NCBI RefSeq assembly: GCF_947496195.1
Contig: NZ_CANMBY010000001.1
Coordinates: 1,364,001 to 1,428,000, forward strand
Direction: 5' to 3'
Length of the DNA stretch: 64,000 nucleotides
From: an uncultured Polaribacter sp.
Lineage (GTDB): Bacteria; Bacteroidota; Bacteroidia; Flavobacteriales; Flavobacteriaceae
In this document: positions 10,777 through 17,780 of the stretch, one piece after another
Layout: the number at the start of each line of letters is the position of its first letter
Numbering within the stretch: the stretch's first letter is position 1
The notes under the pieces: generated by a model
Database searches by the model: none
Seen by the model: only the letters and a program-made list of their open reading frames with translations
Told to the model about the DNA's origin: nothing
Translations under genes and position numbers: made by a program

Positions 10777-13700
10777 TTATCTCATAATTTTTACATTCAT
10801 TTCTTCTACTTTTTTATCAGAAAGAGGAGAAGGAGCATTAAATAATAAGTCTTCTGATGTTCCAGTTTTTGGAAAAGCCATAACTTCTCTAATAGAAGCT
10901 TTTTTCTCCAAAATCATCATTAGTCTGTCTACACCCCAAGCAATTCCTCCATGAGGAGGTGCTCCATATTGAAAGGCTTTATACATAGTTCCTACACTTT
11001 TAATCATTTCTTTTTTATTGTAACCCATATTTCTATACGTTGCTTCTAAAATTTCTGATTTGTGTGCTCTAACAGAACCACCTCCAATTTCGTATCCATT
11101 TAATATTAAATCATACTGCTGGGCAATAATGCTGCCAATTTCATCTTCATTTCCATTCATGTGTTTTTCTAAATCGTAAACTGCTGGCATAGAAAAAGGA
11201 TTGTGTGTAAACGTCCATCTACCTTCATCCGTTTTTTCAAACATTGGGAAATCAACAACCCAAGCAGGTCTTAATTCTTTTGGATTAATCAATTTTAAAA
11301 TACGTCCCATTTCTTGACGAACAGCATCTAGAGCTTTGTTTGCAGTTGCATAATCAGCAGCAGAAAAGAATACAATATCTCCAACTTGTGCACTGTTTGC
11401 TTTGATAATATTAGCTGCAATATCTTCACCTAAAAACTTAATAATTGGCGATTGTAAATCATTTTCATTAACGATAATGTAGGCTAAACCTCCTAAACCA
11501 TGTTGTTGTGCAATTGCTGTTAAGTTTTCAATTTGACCTTTAGACATACGTTTGTTGCCTTGCTCTGCAGCAGAAACTTTAATACACTTTACAATTCCAC
11601 CTTCATCAATAGGTTTGCTAAAAACCTGAAAAGAAGTTTCTTTAACAATTTCTGTAATGTCTTGCATTTCTAGACCAAAGCGTAAATCTGGTCTATCACA
11701 ACCATATTTATCCATAGCTTCTTTGTAAGTGAGTATTACAAATGGATGTAAAATCCATTTTTTGCAATAGATTTTTGTAACCACTTCATTAAACATTTTG
11801 GTGTTCAATTCAATGATATCTTGCATGCTTGCATAAGCTAACTCTATATCTAACTGGGTAAATTCTGGTTGACGATCACCTCTGGAATCTTCATCTCTAA
11901 AACAACGAGCAATTTGAAAATACTTTTCAAAACCACCTACCATTAACATTTGCTTAAATTGTTGAGGTGCTTGTGGTAAGGTGTAAAAAGAACCAGCTTG
12001 TTTTCTTGTTGGGACAATAAATTCTCTTGCACCTTCATCTGTTCCTGCTGTTAAAATAGGTGTTTCAATTTCTAAGAATTCTTCTTCATCTAAAATATCA
12101 CGTAATAATTTTATGACTTTATGACGATTAATAATTGCGCTGCGAACATCATCATTTCTATGATCTAAAAACTTGTATTGAAAACGAGTGGTTTCATTAG
12201 TTTTAGTAGCTCTTTTAATTTCAAAAGGTAATGTTTTAGAAAGGTTTAAAATTTCTAATTCTGATGTTTCTAATTCAATTTTACCAGTTCTTAAACTTGA
12301 GTTATAATCATCTTCTTTTCTTTGAACAATAATGCCTTTAACTGTAATTACAGTTTCTGGTTTTAGCTTTACTAATTCATCTAAATTCGGAAAAGTTTCT
12401 CTACTCAATCTAACTTGAAAAACCTCGTTATTAGAACCACGCAAATCAATAAATATTAATTCTCCATGATCACGAACGCTAGCTACCCAACCAGCTAAAG
12501 TCACTTCTTCATTAATATTCAATTCTGAAAGTTGAACAATTTTATGGCTTCTATATTGTTCTTTAATTACAATCGGTATTTTAGGTAATTCCTCTTGGTT
12601 GATGTTTGTTGGTTGATGTTTGTTGGTTGATGACTTGTTACTTCCAGCTTCATTCTTCACACTTCCAACTTTATCGACAGTAATTTGTGACAAAATCTCC
12701 TCACGAATCACTTTCCCAGAAGCACCTTTGCCAATAATTTTTATGACTTTACCAACTAGGATTCCTGCTTTTCCTTGGTTACCCTTTTTAATATCATTTA
12801 CAATAGCTTCATTTTCAGAAACTACTTTAGCAACAGCGTCTTTAATTTGACTTTCTGAAATAGTGTTTTCATCAAAATACTTCTTATAGTCAAAAGTTCT
12901 GTCTTTTAAATAGCTCGTAATTCCGTTTTGAACTAAAACAGATGTAATTTTTTCTTCTTTAAATAATTGAAAAATCTCAATTAAATGGGCAATACTATGA
13001 ATATTTGCATACTCATCTGCAGTAATATTATTCACTAAGGTTTTTGCCACAAAAGAAGGATCTTTAATGACATTATTAATAGCAATAAAAGTTTCTGAAC
13101 GCACAGCATCTGCTGTAAAAAACTTGGCATCTTGAGGTAAAACACCTCCTTTAATTAAGATAGATTCTACTGCAAAAGGCAATGAGCTTACATCAACATC
13201 TATACTATCAACTACACTTTTAATATTCACAAAAGGTAAATCTGGTTCAGATATAAATCGATAATCTGCTTCAAACTCCTTTTTACGCATTGTTTTGGTC
13301 TGTTTTAAATCAGCGTCAAATAATACTGTAGTTTGATCTGGCCTAAACTCTTTGTTTTCTAAATAATAGTTCAGTTGTTTTTCAACTTCTTCTTTTAAAG
13401 CTTCAATCATAAACTTAAATGAGTTTAAGTTTTTGATTTCAGTTCTAGGATTTAATTGATATGAATGTTTTTTTCTAAGTGATACAGAAACATCACTTTT
13501 AAATTCTCCTTTTTCTAAATTGGCTTCAGAAATTTTTAAGTTTTGAACAATTCTCTGAATGTATTGAGCGTAAATAGATGCATCTTCTATATGACGAATA
13601 CAAGGTTCTGTTACAATTTCAATTAAAGGAACTCCAGCTTTGTTAAAATCAACTAAAGACACCTTCTTTTCGTGCATCAATTTTGCAGCATCTTCTTCTA

Positions 13701-14109
13701 TGTGAACTTGAGTTAAATTTACAGTAAACTGACTTCCATCATTTCTAAAACAAGAAACTTGACCATCAGGAATTATAGGATTATGAAACTGCGTAATTTG
13801 AATATTTTTTGGGTTGTCTGGATATTCATAATGCTTCCTATCCCAAGAAATCACTTCATTTTCGAAAGTAGATTTTACTGCTTTACCAAAATAAATTGCT
13901 TTTTTTATTGCAGCTGAATTTACAGCAGGTAAAACACCCATTTGCCCAGTGCAAACAGAACATATATTTGTGTTGGGTTTTTCAGATTCTTGATTTGCAC
14001 AAGAACAAAATAGTTTTGATTTTGTGTTTAAACGAACGTGGGTTTCTAAACCAATGACTAACTCTAACTCATGCTTTTTTAAAAGCTCATTTAATTTTTC
14101 TAACTCCAT
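10777..14109 (-). CDS. gatB-aspS: GatB-aspartyl-tRNA synthetase fusion protein
   Basis: One 1110-aa frame holds two enzymes. Residues 1 to about 480 are GatB, the subunit that binds misacylated tRNA (GLETHVRLNT, zinc cysteines FCSC and CSVCTG, YEYPDNPKNIQITQ, C-terminal YqeY-like tail). A Ser/Asn/Gln-rich linker follows (about 483-515). From about 519 comes a complete bacterial AspRS with OB-fold, GAD insert and class II motifs (FRDEDSRGDRQPEFTQLD, GIAWGVDRL). His548 in RDHGEL matches the His associated, from memory, with non-discriminating AspRS (H31 in Pseudomonas). The chain could therefore charge Asp onto tRNA(Asn) and pass it to the amidotransferase. The gene overlaps the gatA stop by one base. 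NCBI uses a bifunctional GatB/AspS name, as I recall. Confidence 0.95.
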   Translation of the reverse strand: MELEKLNELLKKHELELVIGLETHVRLNTKSKLFCSCANQESEKPNTNICSVCTGQMGVLPAVNSAAIKKAIYFGKAVKSTFENEVISWDRKHYEYPDNPKNIQITQFHNPIIPDGQVSCFRNDGSQFTVNLTQVHIEEDAAKLMHEKKVSLVDFNKAGVPLIEIVTEPCIRHIEDASIYAQYIQRIVQNLKISEANLEKGEFKSDVSVSLRKKHSYQLNPRTEIKNLNSFKFMIEALKEEVEKQLNYYLENKEFRPDQTTVLFDADLKQTKTMRKKEFEADYRFISEPDLPFVNIKSVVDSIDVDVSSLPFAVESILIKGGVLPQDAKFFTADAVRSETFIAINNVIKDPSFVAKTLVNNITADEYANIHSIAHLIEIFQLFKEEKITSVLVQNGITSYLKDRTFDYKKYFDENTISESQIKDAVAKVVSENEAIVNDIKKGNQGKAGILVGKVIKIIGKGASGKVIREEILSQITVDKVGSVKNEAGSNKSSTNKHQPTNINQEELPKIPIVIKEQYRSHKIVQLSELNINEEVTLAGWVASVRDHGELIFIDLRGSNNEVFQVRLSRETFPNLDELVKLKPETVITVKGIIVQRKEDDYNSSLRTGKIELETSELEILNLSKTLPFEIKRATKTNETTRFQYKFLDHRNDDVRSAIINRHKVIKLLRDILDEEEFLEIETPILTAGTDEGAREFIVPTRKQAGSFYTLPQAPQQFKQMLMVGGFEKYFQIARCFRDEDSRGDRQPEFTQLDIELAYASMQDIIELNTKMFNEVVTKIYCKKWILHPFVILTYKEAMDKYGCDRPDLRFGLEMQDITEIVKETSFQVFSKPIDEGGIVKCIKVSAAEQGNKRMSKGQIENLTAIAQQHGLGGLAYIIVNENDLQSPIIKFLGEDIAANIIKANSAQVGDIVFFSAADYATANKALDAVRQEMGRILKLINPKELRPAWVVDFPMFEKTDEGRWTFTHNPFSMPAVYDLEKHMNGNEDEIGSIIAQQYDLILNGYEIGGGSVRAHKSEILEATYRNMGYNKKEMIKSVGTMYKAFQYGAPPHGGIAWGVDRLMMILEKKASIREVMAFPKTGTSEDLLFNAPSPLSDKKVEEMNVKIMR
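12595..12632 (-). repeat. 14-bp tandem repeat in the GatB-AspRS linker
   Basis: The 14-bp unit CATCAACCAACAAA (minus strand) occurs as two full copies and one 10-bp partial copy. It encodes part of the linker (STNKHQPTNINQ). Fourteen is not a multiple of three, so successive copies are read in different frames. Confidence 0.9.
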
Positions 14110-15506
14110 TATAAAATATCCTTTAAAAAGTTAGCGAATTGTAATACTTTTTCATCATTATCTTTAGCTGCTGTAATTTGAATTCCTGTTGATGTGCCTT
14201 GTGGAGCTGTTAACGTAGGTAACTGTCCTAAACTAAAACCAACTGTATAAGCATCAGATAAATACATAGCTAATGGATCTTTTAGGCTATCTCCAATTTT
14301 AGGAGGTGTATTTGGTGTAACAGGTGATAAAATGATATCAACCTCTTTAAAGTCGTTTTCAAAATTGGCAGCAATTTGATCTCTTAAATTTAGTCCTTTT
14401 AAATAAATTTCATCAGAAAAACCTTGAGATAATACCTGATTTCCACCAACAATTCTACGTTTGGTTTCTTCAGAAAAATTCTCTGAACGTGTTATGGAAT
14501 AGGTGTCTTTTAAATTTTCACCTTCAATTCGATTTCCATAATTTGTGCCATCTAATCTAGAAAGGTTAGAAGCTGTTTCTGCCATGGCTAAAGTGTAATA
14601 GGTAGAAACTAAAGTATCAGAATCAAAGAAATCTAGTTCTTTTACTTGAATTCCTTTTTCTCTTATTCTTTCTAAAGCATTTAAAAAATCTTCTTTAATT
14701 TCTGGATTTATTGCATCACTTTCTATGAAGTTTTTAAAATAACCAACAGTTTTAACTTGGTTTTTGGCAATACTACCATCAGTAATTATTTTAGATTCAT
14801 AAGTAGTTTGATCTTTTATATCTCTTCCACTCATTACATTTACAACAATTCTAATGTCTTCTATTGATTTTGCAATTGGACCTACACAATCTGTTGATGA
14901 GGCATAAGCCATTAATCCAAATCTAGAAATTCTACCATAAGTAGGCTTTAATCCATAGACGTTATTATATCCTGCTGGTTGTCTGATTGAACCACCTGTG
15001 TCACCTCCAATAGAAAAAACTGTGTAGTCTTTGGCAACATTTACTGCTGAGCCACCACTAGAACCACCTCCAACTAAATTAGGGTTAATTGCATTCTTAA
15101 CGGCTCCAAAAATGGTGTTTTCTGATGATGAACCATGACCAAAACTATCGCAGTTTTCTTTTACTAAAGGAATTGCACCTGCATCTAATAATTTTTGAAT
15201 TGCAGTTGCTGTATATGCAGATTTATAATTTTTTAAAAGTTGAGAACTAGCTGTAGTATACGTTCCTTGAACCATATATACATCTTTAATTCCAAAAGGG
15301 ATACCTTCTAATAAACCAATTGCTGCCCCAGATTCAATTTTTGCATCTACTCTTTCTGCTAATTCTAAAGCCATTTTATCTAACAAAGAATTTACAGTAT
15401 TGTGTGTGTTTTCTTTTAAGGCATTTAATTTTTCTTGAATTAAAGACATACATGTAATTTCTTTACTCACCAATTGTTGATGAATTTTGTGTATTTGTGA
15501 TTCCAT
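14109..15506 (-). CDS. gatA: Glutamyl/aspartyl-tRNA amidotransferase subunit A
   Basis: Amidase-signature subunit that releases ammonia from glutamine for transamidation of Asp-tRNA(Asn) or Glu-tRNA(Gln). The 465-aa protein carries the catalytic Lys region GIPFGIKDVY, the glycine/serine signature VGGGSSGGSAVNVA and the nucleophile segment GGDTGGSIRQPAG, completing the Ser-cisSer-Lys triad. Its last base overlaps the ATG of gatB-aspS, and it starts 2 bp after gatC, which implies one transcript and coupled translation. Confidence 0.96.
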   Translation of the reverse strand: MESQIHKIHQQLVSKEITCMSLIQEKLNALKENTHNTVNSLLDKMALELAERVDAKIESGAAIGLLEGIPFGIKDVYMVQGTYTTASSQLLKNYKSAYTATAIQKLLDAGAIPLVKENCDSFGHGSSSENTIFGAVKNAINPNLVGGGSSGGSAVNVAKDYTVFSIGGDTGGSIRQPAGYNNVYGLKPTYGRISRFGLMAYASSTDCVGPIAKSIEDIRIVVNVMSGRDIKDQTTYESKIITDGSIAKNQVKTVGYFKNFIESDAINPEIKEDFLNALERIREKGIQVKELDFFDSDTLVSTYYTLAMAETASNLSRLDGTNYGNRIEGENLKDTYSITRSENFSEETKRRIVGGNQVLSQGFSDEIYLKGLNLRDQIAANFENDFKEVDIILSPVTPNTPPKIGDSLKDPLAMYLSDAYTVGFSLGQLPTLTAPQGTSTGIQITAAKDNDEKVLQFANFLKDIL

Positions 15507-15508
15507 AT

Positions 15509-15775
15509 TTATTCCTCTATCACTCTATTTACAACTAAGTATCCTTTCTTTTCTTTTGGAAAGTTCTCTTTGATAATACTTTTTTCTAATGCTGAGCTGT
15601 TTATAACAACATCATCCCTCAAATCTTCTAAAGACACAGCACTTTTATTTAAATTGTTGAAGCTATTGTTACTTGTGTTTGCATTCTTAATAGCTTCAAA
15701 TAATTTACTTACAGCTTTAGATTCTTTAGCTCCTTTAATGCTAGACAAAATGTCTACAGTCATTATTTTACTCAT
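15509..15775 (-). CDS. gatC: Probable GatC, with atypical N-terminal half
   Basis: An 88-aa protein at the first position of the operon. The C-terminal half (LRDDVV, then FPKEKKGYLVVNRVIEE) matches the end of GatC, the small subunit that clamps GatA to GatB. The N-terminal half (MSKIMTVDILSSIKGAKES and a Ser/Asn stretch NANTSNNSFNNLN) does not show the usual helical GatC pattern around a conserved LARL segment. It may be a diverged or partly replaced GatC. A second start at 15763 (MTVDIL) is possible. Expression is predicted to depend on the attenuator immediately upstream. Confidence 0.6.
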   Translation of the reverse strand: MSKIMTVDILSSIKGAKESKAVSKLFEAIKNANTSNNSFNNLNKSAVSLEDLRDDVVINSSALEKSIIKENFPKEKKGYLVVNRVIEE

Positions 15776-15795
15776 GTTGTACTTTTTTTAAAATG

Positions 15796-15826
15796 AAAAA
15801 ACCTTCCAATATTTTGGAAGGTTTTT
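15796..15826 (-). terminator. Attenuator terminator upstream of gatC
   Basis: Minus-strand hairpin AAAAACCTTCCAA / TTGGAAGGTTTTT (15826-15814 with 15809-15797, loop AATA), followed by a T-run that ends about 20 bp before the gatC ATG. Placed between a leader peptide and the first structural gene, it works as a conditional rather than an end-of-operon terminator. Confidence 0.85.
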
Positions 15827-15855
15827 AATATATTTTAAACAATACAATTCCTTCC
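15796..15855 (-). promoter_or_regulatory. Asn-responsive transcription attenuator of gatC-gatA-gatB/aspS
   Basis: Directly after the leader stop codon the RNA reads GGAAGGAATTG (15855-15845). GGAAGG (15855-15850) is perfectly complementary to CCTTCC (15821-15816) in the 5' arm of the terminator, so antiterminator and terminator exclude each other. A ribosome stalled on the Asn codons leaves GGAAGG free to pair, allowing read-through. A ribosome that reaches the stop codon covers GGAAGG and lets the terminator form. The elements are visible in the sequence; the mechanism is inferred from classical trp/his-type attenuators. Confidence 0.8.
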
Positions 15856-15903
15856 CTAAAAATCAGGATTATTGAAATTATTATTGTTATTGTTACGAAT
15901 CAT
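15856..15903 (-). CDS. Asn-rich leader peptide of the gatCAB-aspS operon
   Basis: ATG at 15903 to TAG at 15856 encodes MIRNNNNNNFNNPDF: 8 of 15 residues are asparagine, six of them in a row, using both AAC and AAT. It lies about 15 nt after the predicted start of transcription and immediately before the antiterminator segment. The composition matches the pathway product, Asn-tRNA(Asn), as in known attenuation leader peptides. No family is known to me; the peptide probably has no function beyond being translated. Confidence 0.85.
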   Translation of the reverse strand: MIRNNNNNNFNNPDF

Positions 15904-15922
15904 ATATAATATTAATTACTGA

Positions 15923-15952
15923 CAAATATAGATAGATTTGAGTCGTTTGCAA
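15923..15952 (-). promoter_or_regulatory. Promoter of the gatCAB-aspS operon
   Basis: On the minus strand TTG (15952-15950), 19 bp, then TATATTTG (15930-15923): a full Bacteroidetes consensus. Predicted initiation is near 15918, about 15 nt ahead of the Asn-rich leader ATG. Confidence 0.7.
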
Positions 15953-16228
15953 GTTTTTTACACATTTTATTCGATTTTTTTAAATGAAAACACCAATAAT
16001 TTAAAAAATAAATTATTGGCGCTGAAATTAATTCAATAAATTCAAATTCAAACACTCATTCTGAATGTAAAATAACAAGTTTTTATACAAATATTTTACA
16101 TAATGATTAATATTTGTAATAATTTGTAATAAATAAGAAACAATATTTATAAAAATGAAAGTTCGAAAACGTTTTCTTAAGCTTATAATTTTTCATTTTT
16201 AATCTTAACAAAAAACATGAAAGAATTC
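15953..16228. other. Divergent intergenic region with inverted repeats
   Basis: This is the middle of the gap between the two divergent leader promoters; no coding frame is supported. It contains a perfect 11-bp inverted repeat (CCAATAATTTA 15993-16003 with TAAATTATTGG 16009-16019) lacking a strong T-run, and the 12-bp palindrome GAAAACGTTTTC (16165-16176), which looks like a LacI-family operator. The rest is AT-rich with no feature I can name. Confidence 0.45.
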
Positions 16229-16259
16229 TTGTACAAATAAAAAAGCCTTTCTAAATTTG
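16229..16259 (+). promoter_or_regulatory. Promoter of the trp operon
   Basis: TTG (16229-16231), 20 bp, then TAAATTTG (16252-16259). Initiation would fall near 16264-16266, only a few bases before the trpL ATG at 16267, so the leader peptide mRNA may be almost leaderless. Confidence 0.7.
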
Positions 16260-16266
16260 CTACTCA

Positions 16267-16311
16267 ATGCAAAAACAACAAAATATATGGTGGTGGAACT
16301 CTCTTATTTAA
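16267..16311 (+). CDS. trpL: trp operon leader peptide
   Basis: ATG 16267 to TAA 16309-16311 encodes MQKQQNIWWWNSLI, with three consecutive Trp codons (16288-16296). It precedes a terminator and trpE, the classical design for ribosome-mediated tryptophan attenuation. Confidence 0.92.
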   Translation: MQKQQNIWWWNSLI

Positions 16312-16376
16312 ATAAGTGAGAAAAAAACCTATATATATAAATATAATAAAAGGCTTATCTCACGATAAGCCTTTTT
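16312..16376 (+). promoter_or_regulatory. Tryptophan attenuator (antiterminator/terminator)
   Basis: The terminator is AAAAGGCTTATC (16348-16359) paired with GATAAGCCTTTT (16364-16375), loop TCAC, followed by a T. Just after the leader stop, GTGAGA (16316-16321) can pair with TCTCAC (16358-16363), which covers the base of the loop and disrupts the 5' arm. A protector hairpin CTTATTT/AAATAAG (16303-16316) spans the leader stop. Stalling at the Trp codons would open the protector and favour the antiterminator. Confidence 0.85.
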
Positions 16377-16388
16377 CAATTATAAAAA

Positions 16389-17780
16389 ATGAAAAAAATT
16401 AATTTTAAAGCATTTTCGAAAACTAAGATTGCTGATACATTTACTCCTGTAGGATTGTATTTGAGATTTAGAGATAAATACGCAAATACATTGCTGTTAG
16501 AAAGTTCAGATTATCATAGTAAAGAAGAAAGTTTTTCTTTTATTGCCATAGAACCTGTAATTACAATTAAAGCAGAAAATCATCATTTAAGTTTTTCGCA
16601 TAAAGGAATTGAGTTAGAGAATAAAGAAATAGGAAGAAATTTTAATTCAATTTTTGAAACCTATACAAATCAAATTGAATTAGATTGCCCTAATGAATTA
16701 AAATCATTTAATGGTTTGTATGGTTATACAACTTATGATTCTGTTCAGTATTTTGAAAATATTACGCTAAATGTTGAAGAAGCTCCGTCTGCAATTCCGT
16801 TAATGCAATACAGTTTTTACAGATTTATTATTGCTATCAACCATTTTAATGATGAAATGACTTTGATAGAGAATGTTGAAGAAGGTACAGAGTCTCGAAT
16901 TAAAGAAATTCAAACTATTATTGATGCACAAGCCTTTAATACTCAAAAGTTTGAAATTGTTGGAGATGAAACTTCGAATGTAAAAGGAGAAGAGTTTATT
17001 GAATATGTAAAAAAAGCAAAATCACATTGTAAACGAGGAGATGTTTTTCAATTGGTGTTGTCACGTCAATTTCAACAAAAATTTAAAGGAGATGAATTTA
17101 ATGTTTACAGAGCATTACGTTCAATAAATCCATCACCTTATTTGTTCTTTTTTGATTATGGTTCTTTTAAATTAATGGGCTCATCACCAGAAGCGCAGAT
17201 AAAAATTCAAAAAGGCAAAGCAACTATAAATCCAATTGCAGGAACCTTCAGAAGAACTGGAGATATGGCTAAAGACATTCAGTTAGGTAAAAAATTATCA
17301 GCTGATAAAAAAGAAACAGCAGAACATGTAATGTTAGTGGATTTAGCTAGAAATGATCTAAGCAAACATGCAGATGAAGTAACTGTTGAGGTTTTTAAAG
17401 AAGTGCAATATTTTAGTCATGTTATTCATTTGGTTTCAACTGTTTCTGGTCAGTTAAAGGGTAATCCAATAGAGATTGTAGGTGATACTTTTCCTGCAGG
17501 AACTTTAAGTGGAGCTCCAAAATACAAAGCAATGCAATTAATAGATACATACGAAAATCAATCAAGAGGATTTTATGGAGGTGCTGTTGGTATTATTGGT
17601 TTAGATGGTTCTGTAAATTTGGCAATAGCTATTAGAAGTTTTGTGAGTAAAAATAAGACTTTGTATTACCAAGCAGGAGCAGGAATTGTAATACATTCAG
17701 ACGAAGAAAAAGAATTACAAGAAGTTAATAATAAACTAGCAGCGTTAAAAAAAGCGTTGATTTTAGCGGAAAATATATAA
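16389..17780 (+). CDS. trpE: Anthranilate synthase component I
   Basis: Converts chorismate and ammonia to anthranilate, the first committed step to tryptophan. The 463-aa protein has the chorismate-binding domain with KRGDVFQLVLSRQF, PSPYLFFF, ATINPIAGTFRRTGD, ADKKETAEHVMLVDLARND and TLSGAPKYKAMQLID. The N-terminal LLESSDY segment (about 36-42) corresponds to the LLES element that binds tryptophan for feedback inhibition. It starts 12 bp after the attenuator T-run, so it is controlled both by attenuation and, probably, by product inhibition. Confidence 0.97.
   Translation: MKKINFKAFSKTKIADTFTPVGLYLRFRDKYANTLLLESSDYHSKEESFSFIAIEPVITIKAENHHLSFSHKGIELENKEIGRNFNSIFETYTNQIELDCPNELKSFNGLYGYTTYDSVQYFENITLNVEEAPSAIPLMQYSFYRFIIAINHFNDEMTLIENVEEGTESRIKEIQTIIDAQAFNTQKFEIVGDETSNVKGEEFIEYVKKAKSHCKRGDVFQLVLSRQFQQKFKGDEFNVYRALRSINPSPYLFFFDYGSFKLMGSSPEAQIKIQKGKATINPIAGTFRRTGDMAKDIQLGKKLSADKKETAEHVMLVDLARNDLSKHADEVTVEVFKEVQYFSHVIHLVSTVSGQLKGNPIEIVGDTFPAGTLSGAPKYKAMQLIDTYENQSRGFYGGAVGIIGLDGSVNLAIAIRSFVSKNKTLYYQAGAGIVIHSDEEKELQEVNNKLAALKKALILAENI

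What the first reader, a model, noticed from the sequence alone, without database searches (positions are those of the whole stretch)
15775..15952. Asn-rich leader peptide and attenuator controlling gatC-gatA-gatB/aspS
Between a consensus promoter and gatC, the minus strand carries MIRNNNNNNFNNPDF (8 of 15 residues Asn). GGAAGG just after its stop codon is complementary to the CCTTCC arm of a GGAAGG/CCTTCC terminator that ends 20 nt before gatC. This is the complete set of parts for ribosome-mediated attenuation, and the tested amino acid is exactly what the operon makes on tRNA. Classical examples control amino-acid biosynthesis or synthetase genes. I know of no described case controlling the GatCAB amidotransferase through Asn-tRNA(Asn).
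Basis: partly seen in the sequence, partly recalled or inferred. Interest (0 to 1): 0.93.

Follow-up and report, generated by a model that had tools for sequence, protein, structure and literature searches.

The report
Asparagine-sensing switch for an asparagine-making operon
In Polaribacter-like bacteria and several related genera, a short RNA ahead of the genes that likely make asparagine directly on its tRNA encodes a mostly-asparagine mini-peptide and is predicted to let those genes be read only when asparagine-charged tRNA runs short.

Summary
The minus strand carries a Bacteroidetes-type promoter box, MIRNNNNNNFNNPDF, GGAAGG directly after the stop, and a terminator-like hairpin ahead of gatC. 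The same unit stands in 30 of 77 readable named gatC loci and 11 of 13 further same-genus loci. A covariance model finds 37 strong hits in 397 family genomes: 36 in cassette-bearing genomes, one running into gatC at a contig end. The operon (gatC, gatA, gatB fused to a second aspS) is in 59 of 397 genomes; none of these has E. coli-type AsnB, against 297 of the other 338. The window's genome has AsnRS and GlnRS but neither AsnA nor AsnB, so the cassette is probably its only asparagine-making route. Best reading: ribosome-mediated transcription attenuation by Asn-tRNA. The kind is known, and T-box control of tRNA-dependent amidation exists in Clostridium. Ten literature searches showed no Asn leader peptide. 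The response itself is untested.

The parts
15923..15952 (-). Predicted promoter: TATATTTG (-7 type, 15930-15923) with TTGC (15952-15949) as possible -33 part
   Evidence: TAnnTTTG lies within 45 nt upstream of the leader ATG in 41 of 42 leaders; consensus recalled
15856..15903 (-). Leader ORF MIRNNNNNNFNNPDF, stop TAG
   Evidence: frame kept in 42 leaders, codons counted over 41 rows
15838..15888 (-). Hairpin 1:2: AACAAUA 15888-15882 with UAUUGUU 15844-15838; UAAUUUC 15880-15874 with GGAAUUG 15851-15845; UCCUGA 15868-15863 with UUAGGG 15859-15854; would hold GGAAGG when no ribosome stands on the Asn codons
   Evidence: fold of the window leader; RNAalifold consensus of 41 leaders
15850..15855 (-). 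Antiterminator strand GGAAGG, 0 nt after the stop codon (0-5 nt in 41 leaders)
15796..15826 (-). Terminator-like hairpin AAAAACCTTCC...GGAAGGTTTTT and T run; its 5' arm CCTTCC 15821-15816 is also the partner of the antiterminator
15509..15775 (-). gatC (divergent: 21.2 bits, cut-off 47.1)
14109..15506 (-). gatA (434.7 bits, cut-off 481.1; Amidase domain)
10777..14109 (-). gatB::aspS fusion, 1110 aa (GatB 13-476, aspartyl-tRNA synthetase 517-1108)

Best explanation
The leader on the minus strand at 15930-15796 holds a 15-codon frame with eight Asn codons, a terminator-like hairpin and two competing partners for the GGAAGG segment after the stop codon, and it likely works as a ribosome-mediated transcription attenuator that lets gatC-gatA-gatB::aspS be transcribed when Asn-tRNA(Asn) is scarce. 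Shown in sequence: the parts, their conservation, the co-occurrence of leader and terminator, and, in the genomes searched, the restriction to this operon. Inferred steps: (1) with enough Asn-tRNA the ribosome reaches the TAG stop, covers GGAAGG 0-5 nt downstream, the terminator forms and transcription stops. (2) With too little Asn-tRNA the ribosome stalls on the Asn run and opens the Asn-codon part of the 1:2 hairpin; GGAAGG(UU) then pairs with (AG)CCUUCC before the terminator's 3' arm is made, and RNA polymerase reads through. (3) The operon's product, GatCAB with its built-in and probably non-discriminating AspRS, makes Asn on tRNA(Asn) and so closes the loop. AsnRS is also present, so this pathway probably supplies asparagine for the cell in place of AsnB.
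For: Conservation: leader in 30 of 77 readable named loci plus the window, and in 11 of 13 further same-genus loci. All 42 frames end in TAG; 41 of 42 have TAnnTTTG within 45 nt upstream of the ATG. Coding signal: at the three codons 5' of the paired segment (-7 to -5) 95 of 123 codons are Asn (AAT 72, AAC 23) and 2 are Lys; -3 and -1 are Asn in 41 of 41 rows. Structure: RNAalifold returns the 1:2 hairpin and the terminator unprompted. 97.8% of cells pair (shuffles 96.6, slid partners 43-65); twelve cells in four pairs change on both sides (shuffled mean 4.0), three of them C-G to U-A in the leader hairpin (L048, L063, L123), the other nine in the terminator. Folding by state, footprint assumed to end 12 nt after the first base of the A-site codon: with the ribosome on either of the last two codons before Phe and the 3' arm not yet made, antiterminator probability is at least 0.99 in 41 of 41; with the ribosome at the stop it exceeds 0.5 in 0 of 41. 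Specificity: the covariance model gives 37 hits of at least 90 bits in 397 family genomes, the next being 51.5. 36 of the 37 genomes hold the fusion; in 35 leader and fusion lie on one contig, the leader ending 1685-1781 nt before the fusion; the 37th runs into gatC at a contig end. Apart from the window's own genome these 37 bear other handles than the genomes the model rows came from. Pathway: fusion in 59 of 397, E. coli-type AsnB in 297 of 397, both in 0. Own genome: AsnRS yes, GlnRS yes, AsnA and AsnB no, tRNA(Asn) GUU with U1-A72. The RDxG motif of the fused AspRS was found in 93 of 95 loci and x is always His; in stand-alone AspRSs it was found in 12 of 16 loci and is always Lys; the Asp/Asn-type enzyme 4wj3 has His there.
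Against: No transcript, ribosome or reporter data. 47 of 77 named cassettes lack the leader. The antiterminator helix shows no compensatory change (0 pairs; 96.6% paired, shuffles 96.7), as expected of strands shared with two other helices, so it is no independent support; for the 1:2-plus-terminator structure the number of further pair types does not exceed shuffles (18 against 17.6). In the thermodynamic model without a ribosome and before the 3' arm is made, the antiterminator is favoured in 39 of 41 (the window is an exception, 0.10), so an untranslated leader might read through; on the full-length stalled RNA the terminator wins in 35 of 41 and the antiterminator in 5, so the switch must be kinetic. 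AsnB-family paralogues above the model's cut-off stand in 5 of 15 same-genus cassette genomes and 21 of 48 named ones and might also make Asn there. The tRNA specificity of the fused AspRS rests on one residue whose role is recalled.
Confidence: 0.86

Rival explanations
1. The Asn codons are a by-product of an RNA element: a ligand-binding or T-box-like riboswitch senses free Asn or tRNA directly, and translation is irrelevant.
For: Much of the codon conservation is explained by pairing: Phe TTC pairs with GAAG, and the Pro-Asn-x-stop stretch is a hairpin. L065 shifts the stop but keeps the hairpin.
Against: Unpaired codons -7 to -5 alternate AAT and AAC with only 2 Lys codons. An ATG and an in-frame stop are kept in 42 of 42, and the ATG lies 10-23 nt after TAnnTTTG in 37 of 42. 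Rfam at E up to 5 lists no T-box or ligand riboswitch here.
Confidence: 0.06
2. The nascent peptide (FNNPN) is an arrest peptide that stalls the ribosome in response to a ligand or drug, rather than through scarce Asn-tRNA.
For: The C-terminal part is highly conserved: F 41 of 41, N 39, N 39, P 38, N 36.
Against: Pro changes to Ser exactly where its RNA partner changes (L048, L063, L123), and the last residue varies (F, L, C, Y and others). So the pairing, not the residue, seems to be kept. The operon matches the Asn codons.
Confidence: 0.04
3. A passive leader: an upstream terminator plus an A-rich stretch without regulation.
For: Many relatives seem to express the cassette from a proximal promoter without a leader.
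Against: 37 specific hits in 397 genomes, in cassette genomes or running into gatC; leader and terminator come and go together.
Confidence: 0.03

Closest known systems
Trp/His/Leu-type ribosome-mediated transcription attenuators of enterobacteria (recalled)
   Same: Short leader ORF rich in the regulated amino acid, 1:2 hairpin, antiterminator 2:3, terminator 3:4 before the first gene.
   Different: Asn is read, in Bacteroidota; segment 2 lies immediately after the stop codon; the controlled enzyme makes the charged tRNA itself.
Bacteroid-trp leader, Rfam RF01692
   Same: Same phylum, same kind; a copy (46.6 bits, gathering 49, peptide MQKQQNIWWWNSLI) stands on the other strand of the same intergenic region.
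   Different: Reads Trp codons ahead of trpE; the Asn leader matches no Rfam family at its gathering score in the window or in 11 related loci.
[quoted passage not shown] seen only as citations in PMC4206432; details recalled)
   Same: Attenuation of a tRNA-dependent Asn operon according to tRNA charging.
   Different: There the RNA binds the tRNA directly; here the sensor would be a translating ribosome.
tRNA-dependent Asn biosynthesis in Bdellovibrio, Deinococcus and Thermus (PMC4206432, abstract and passages)
   Same: AsnRS and GlnRS present, GatCAB with an AspRS that also charges tRNA(Asn); asparagine synthetases absent. That survey counts Bacteroidetes among its 18 genera with AsnRS, GlnRS and GatCAB but no Asn synthetase.
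   Different: Here the second AspRS matches the bacterial-type model and is fused to GatB; in that survey a second AspRS among those 18 genera occurs only in Deinococcus-Thermus and is archaeal-type.

Membership tests
Ribosome-mediated transcription attenuator | Leader ORF with a run of codons for the regulated amino acid | tested here: met
   8 of 15 codons Asn; Asn at -3 and -1 in 41 of 41 rows
Ribosome-mediated transcription attenuator | Intrinsic terminator between leader ORF and first gene | tested here: met
   in sequence; strict hairpin rule 37 of 42 against 0 of 49; termination itself not tested
Ribosome-mediated transcription attenuator | Antiterminator pairing exclusive with the terminator | tested here: met
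   96.6% of cells pair; at least 0.99 in the stalled state in 41 of 41; no covariation
Ribosome-mediated transcription attenuator | 1:2 hairpin over the regulatory codons | tested here: met
   RNAalifold and pair counts
Ribosome-mediated transcription attenuator | Read-through depends on leader translation and tRNA charging | not testable with these tools
   needs reporter or in vitro transcription
T-box riboswitch | T-box model match | tested here: not met
   none among Rfam matches up to E 5 in window 15500-16500
tRNA-dependent Asn biosynthesis route | GatC, GatA and GatB encoded together | tested here: met
   GatC and GatA score below the NCBIfam cut-offs
tRNA-dependent Asn biosynthesis route | No AsnA or AsnB | tested here: met
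   own genome: best AsnB-model match 4.4e-15 in a 619-aa frame, no AsnA; search with an E. coli-type AsnB protein also blank
tRNA-dependent Asn biosynthesis route | tRNA(Asn) with U1-A72 | tested here: met
   own-genome tRNA(Asn): read by eye from the sequence printed with the start given by ARAGORN; the script's own first-pair column is one base off
tRNA-dependent Asn biosynthesis route | Non-discriminating AspRS | tested here: inconclusive
   His at one recalled position in the 93 of 95 fusion loci where the motif was found, Lys in the 12 of 16 stand-alone loci; no charging assay

The most novel reading that the evidence does not exclude
This is the first ribosome-mediated attenuator that reads asparagine. 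It controls a whole replacement of asparagine synthetase by a covalent transamidosome (GatB fused to a second AspRS), so the signal that is read, Asn-tRNA, is the direct product of the enzyme under control. It arose in Flavobacteriaceae and has been lost or swapped for a plain promoter several times.
Probability: 0.68. Interest if true: 0.72.

Novelty: new variant of a known kind. Interest (0 to 1): 0.64.

Why it matters
Peptide-type attenuators are known for several amino acids (recalled); ten literature searches showed none for Asn. If right, it adds an amino acid and a kind of target: a pathway that makes the amino acid on the very tRNA which the leader ribosome reads, with no separate synthetase step between product and signal. 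That the cassette and E. coli-type AsnB never meet in 397 family genomes also marks a clean natural replacement of one way of making asparagine by another, and makes both claims testable by simple genetics.

Tried and rejected
T-box and known Rfam leaders: no gathering-level match over the Asn leader in the window or in 11 related loci (the weak PyrG_leader and Phe_leader matches at 28-29 bits are far below their cut-offs). GatCAB as the only source of Asn-tRNA or Gln-tRNA: rejected, AsnRS and GlnRS are both present. AsnB-like genes in some cassette genomes: kept apart, because they are single-piece matches in frames of 567-664 aa (21 of 48 cassette genomes) or 577-635 aa (G013, G015, G021, G024, G029), whereas the E. 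coli type (554 aa in G008; best PDB match 1ct9, 704.8 bits) matches the model in two pieces; their function was not tested. Outside the family: an order sample of 246 genomes gave the leader in 1 (own) and the fusion in 3, all same family. L018 matched the core pattern by chance (no terminator) and was dropped. L080 and L122 are the same sequence; only L080 was aligned. L040, L059 and L083 lack the start of gatC and were not counted. G004's cassette runs off its contig, so its leader could not be read.

Full report
What is there. Read on the minus strand: TATATTTG (15930-15923), a 15-codon frame from ATG 15903 to TAG 15858-15856 (MIRNNNNNNFNNPDF), GGAAGG directly after the stop (15855-15850), a 13-pair terminator-like hairpin (15826-15797) with a T run, and the gatC start codon at 15775. 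gatA (14109-15506) follows, then a single 1110-aa frame (10777-14109) in which GatB (residues 13-476) is fused to a complete aspartyl-tRNA synthetase (517-1108). Public records already name this fusion 'bifunctional amidotransferase subunit GatB/aspartate--tRNA ligase AspS'. The Asn-rich frame is the only one of its kind in the 64 kb, and 20 first-order Markov random sequences of that length gave none.

Conservation. Eighty named loci were fetched through gatA, the best 80 of 235 confirmed; 77 have the start of gatC with 158-330 nt upstream. The carriers include Polaribacter, Algibacter, Hyunsoonleella, Seonamhaeicola, Mariniflexile, Flavivirga, Flaviramulus, Gaetbulibacter, Aestuariivivens and Aestuariibaculum (titles). 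All 33 rows of the Lutibacter-Flavobacterium side of the gatA tree lack it. The tree needs at least nine changes of the label, of which well-supported branches force four; its root is unknown. I infer that the leader was lost, or replaced by a proximal promoter, several times. Among 49 upstream regions without the leader, none has a strictly defined terminator-like hairpin within 160 nt of gatC, against 37 of 42 with it; 38 of the 49 have a TAnnTTTG-like box within 60 nt of gatC, against 2 of 42.

Codons or RNA? Both. In 41 aligned leaders (A1) the codons 5' of the paired segment alternate AAT and AAC with almost no Lys codon (95 Asn and 2 Lys of 123 codons at -7 to -5), so the amino acid is kept there. 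The FNNPN part is explained by pairing. RNAalifold, given no hint, returns helices over AACAAU and RUUGUU, UUUC (with the Phe codon) and GAAG of the antiterminator strand, UCCUA and UAGGA around the stop codon, and the terminator. 97.8% of cells pair, against 43-65% with partners slid by 1-3 columns and 96.6% in shuffles, and twelve cells change on both sides (shuffled mean 4.0); the number of further pair types is no higher than in shuffles (18 against 17.6). In L048, L063 and L123 Pro becomes Ser (CCT to TCT) exactly where the opposite G becomes A. In L065 an inserted base moves the stop while the hairpin stays.

How it would switch. The strand GGAAGG(UU) can pair with (AG)CCUUCC, the 5' arm of the terminator (96.6% of cells; no covariation, as expected of a doubly used strand). 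It begins 0-5 nt after the stop codon in 41 of 41, so a ribosome at the stop would cover it. In the folding model (footprint assumed to end 12 nt after the first base of the A-site codon) it pairs with the terminator arm with probability at least 0.99 in 41 of 41 when the ribosome stands on either of the last two codons before Phe and the 3' arm is not yet made, and above 0.5 in 0 of 41 when the ribosome is at the stop; the complete RNA with no ribosome or with the ribosome at the stop forms the terminator in 40 of 41. Two results do not fit smoothly. Without any ribosome and before the 3' arm is made, the antiterminator is favoured in 39 of 41 (in the window the 1:2 hairpin is), and on full-length stalled RNA the terminator wins in 35 of 41. 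The switch must therefore be kinetic, and the fate of an untranslated leader is open.

Which operon needs it. Own genome: AsnRS (618.6 bits), GlnRS (728.9 bits), a stand-alone AspRS, no AsnA, and for the AsnB model only weak matches (best 4.4e-15, in a 619-aa frame). In the 36 same-genus genomes the E. coli-type AsnB is in 0 of 15 with the cassette and 19 of 21 without it; the other two are 53% and 57% complete. In 397 family genomes the fusion (E at most 1e-160) is in 59, AsnB (E at most 1e-120) in 297, both in 0 (Fisher 1.2e-43, not corrected for kinship); 41 have neither, one of them G230, whose cassette is cut by a contig end. In 48 named cassette genomes (of 77 loci, 50 asked, 2 not held) none has the two-piece E. 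coli-type AsnB match; 21 have longer single-piece paralogues of unknown role. tRNA(Asn) of the genome has anticodon GUU and, read from the sequence, U1-A72. The fused AspRS has RDHG in all 93 of 95 loci where the motif was found, like the Asp/Asn-type enzyme 4wj3 (P. aeruginosa by recall), while the stand-alone AspRSs have RDKG in all 12 of 16 loci where it was found; that this residue matters is recalled. So GatCAB-AspRS most likely makes Asn on tRNA(Asn) as the cell's only route to asparagine, as reported for Bdellovibrio (PMC4206432, abstract and passages). An Asn-tRNA sensor in front of it is what one would expect.

Specificity of the leader. Apart from the window's own genome, the hit genomes bear other handles than those from which the model rows came. 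Of the 37, 36 lie in cassette genomes. For 35 the leader ends 1685-1781 nt before the fusion. G275 has leader and fusion on different contigs (not verified further). G230 runs into gatC at a contig end. In a sample of 246 genomes of the order, which includes same-family genomes, only the window's own has it.

Literature. Ten searches of the held library (listings only, apart from passages of three papers) gave no Asn leader-peptide attenuator and no peptide control of GatCAB; most subscription papers are not held. A Flavobacterium transcriptome paper reports clues for leader-peptide attenuation at amino-acid operons in general; its main text has no hit for asparagine or gatC (PMC9723704, passages). 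Weinberg 2010 lists Bacteroid-trp and has no hit for asparagine (PMC2864571, passages). [quoted passage not shown] acetobutylicum is known (citations in PMC4206432; the 2012 original is not held).

Verdict. On all sequence features that could be tested it is of the kind of Trp/His-type attenuators; new are the amino acid, the target and the lineage of the target.

Noticed in passing
16247-16359 (+): Bacteroid-trp leader (46.6 bits, just under gathering 49) with peptide MQKQQNIWWWNSLI ahead of trpE at 16389: two divergent, likely attenuated operons share one intergenic region. Bacteroid-trp also lies on the same stretch as the Asn leader in L117, L123 and L125.
   Followed up: partly
upstream of gatC in L012, L022, L025, L027, L029, L034, L041, L042, L066, L069, L071, L078: Palindrome of the type AACAT-(0-3)-ATGTT, often TTTAACATAATGTTAAA, in 12 of 49 cassettes without the Asn leader and 0 of 42 with it; a possible protein operator that replaces the attenuator.
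   Followed up: partly
15989-16060 (-) and L022, L036, L118, L121: A conserved TTTGAWTTGAATTTAYTGAATTAA element (MFDLNLLN in L022 and L036) followed by a hairpin stands ahead of gatC in several Polaribacter-type loci, with and without the Asn leader (7 of 91 upstream regions by strict pattern); the window has a similar stretch. Nature unknown.
   Followed up: no
L124, L126, L128: Flavo-1 RNA (RF01705) lies upstream of the Asn leader in three same-genus loci.
   Followed up: no
41 of 338 family genomes without a detected fusion cassette also lack AsnB at E 1e-120 (one, G230, has a cut cassette): incomplete genomes, Asn auxotrophs or a further route.
   Followed up: no
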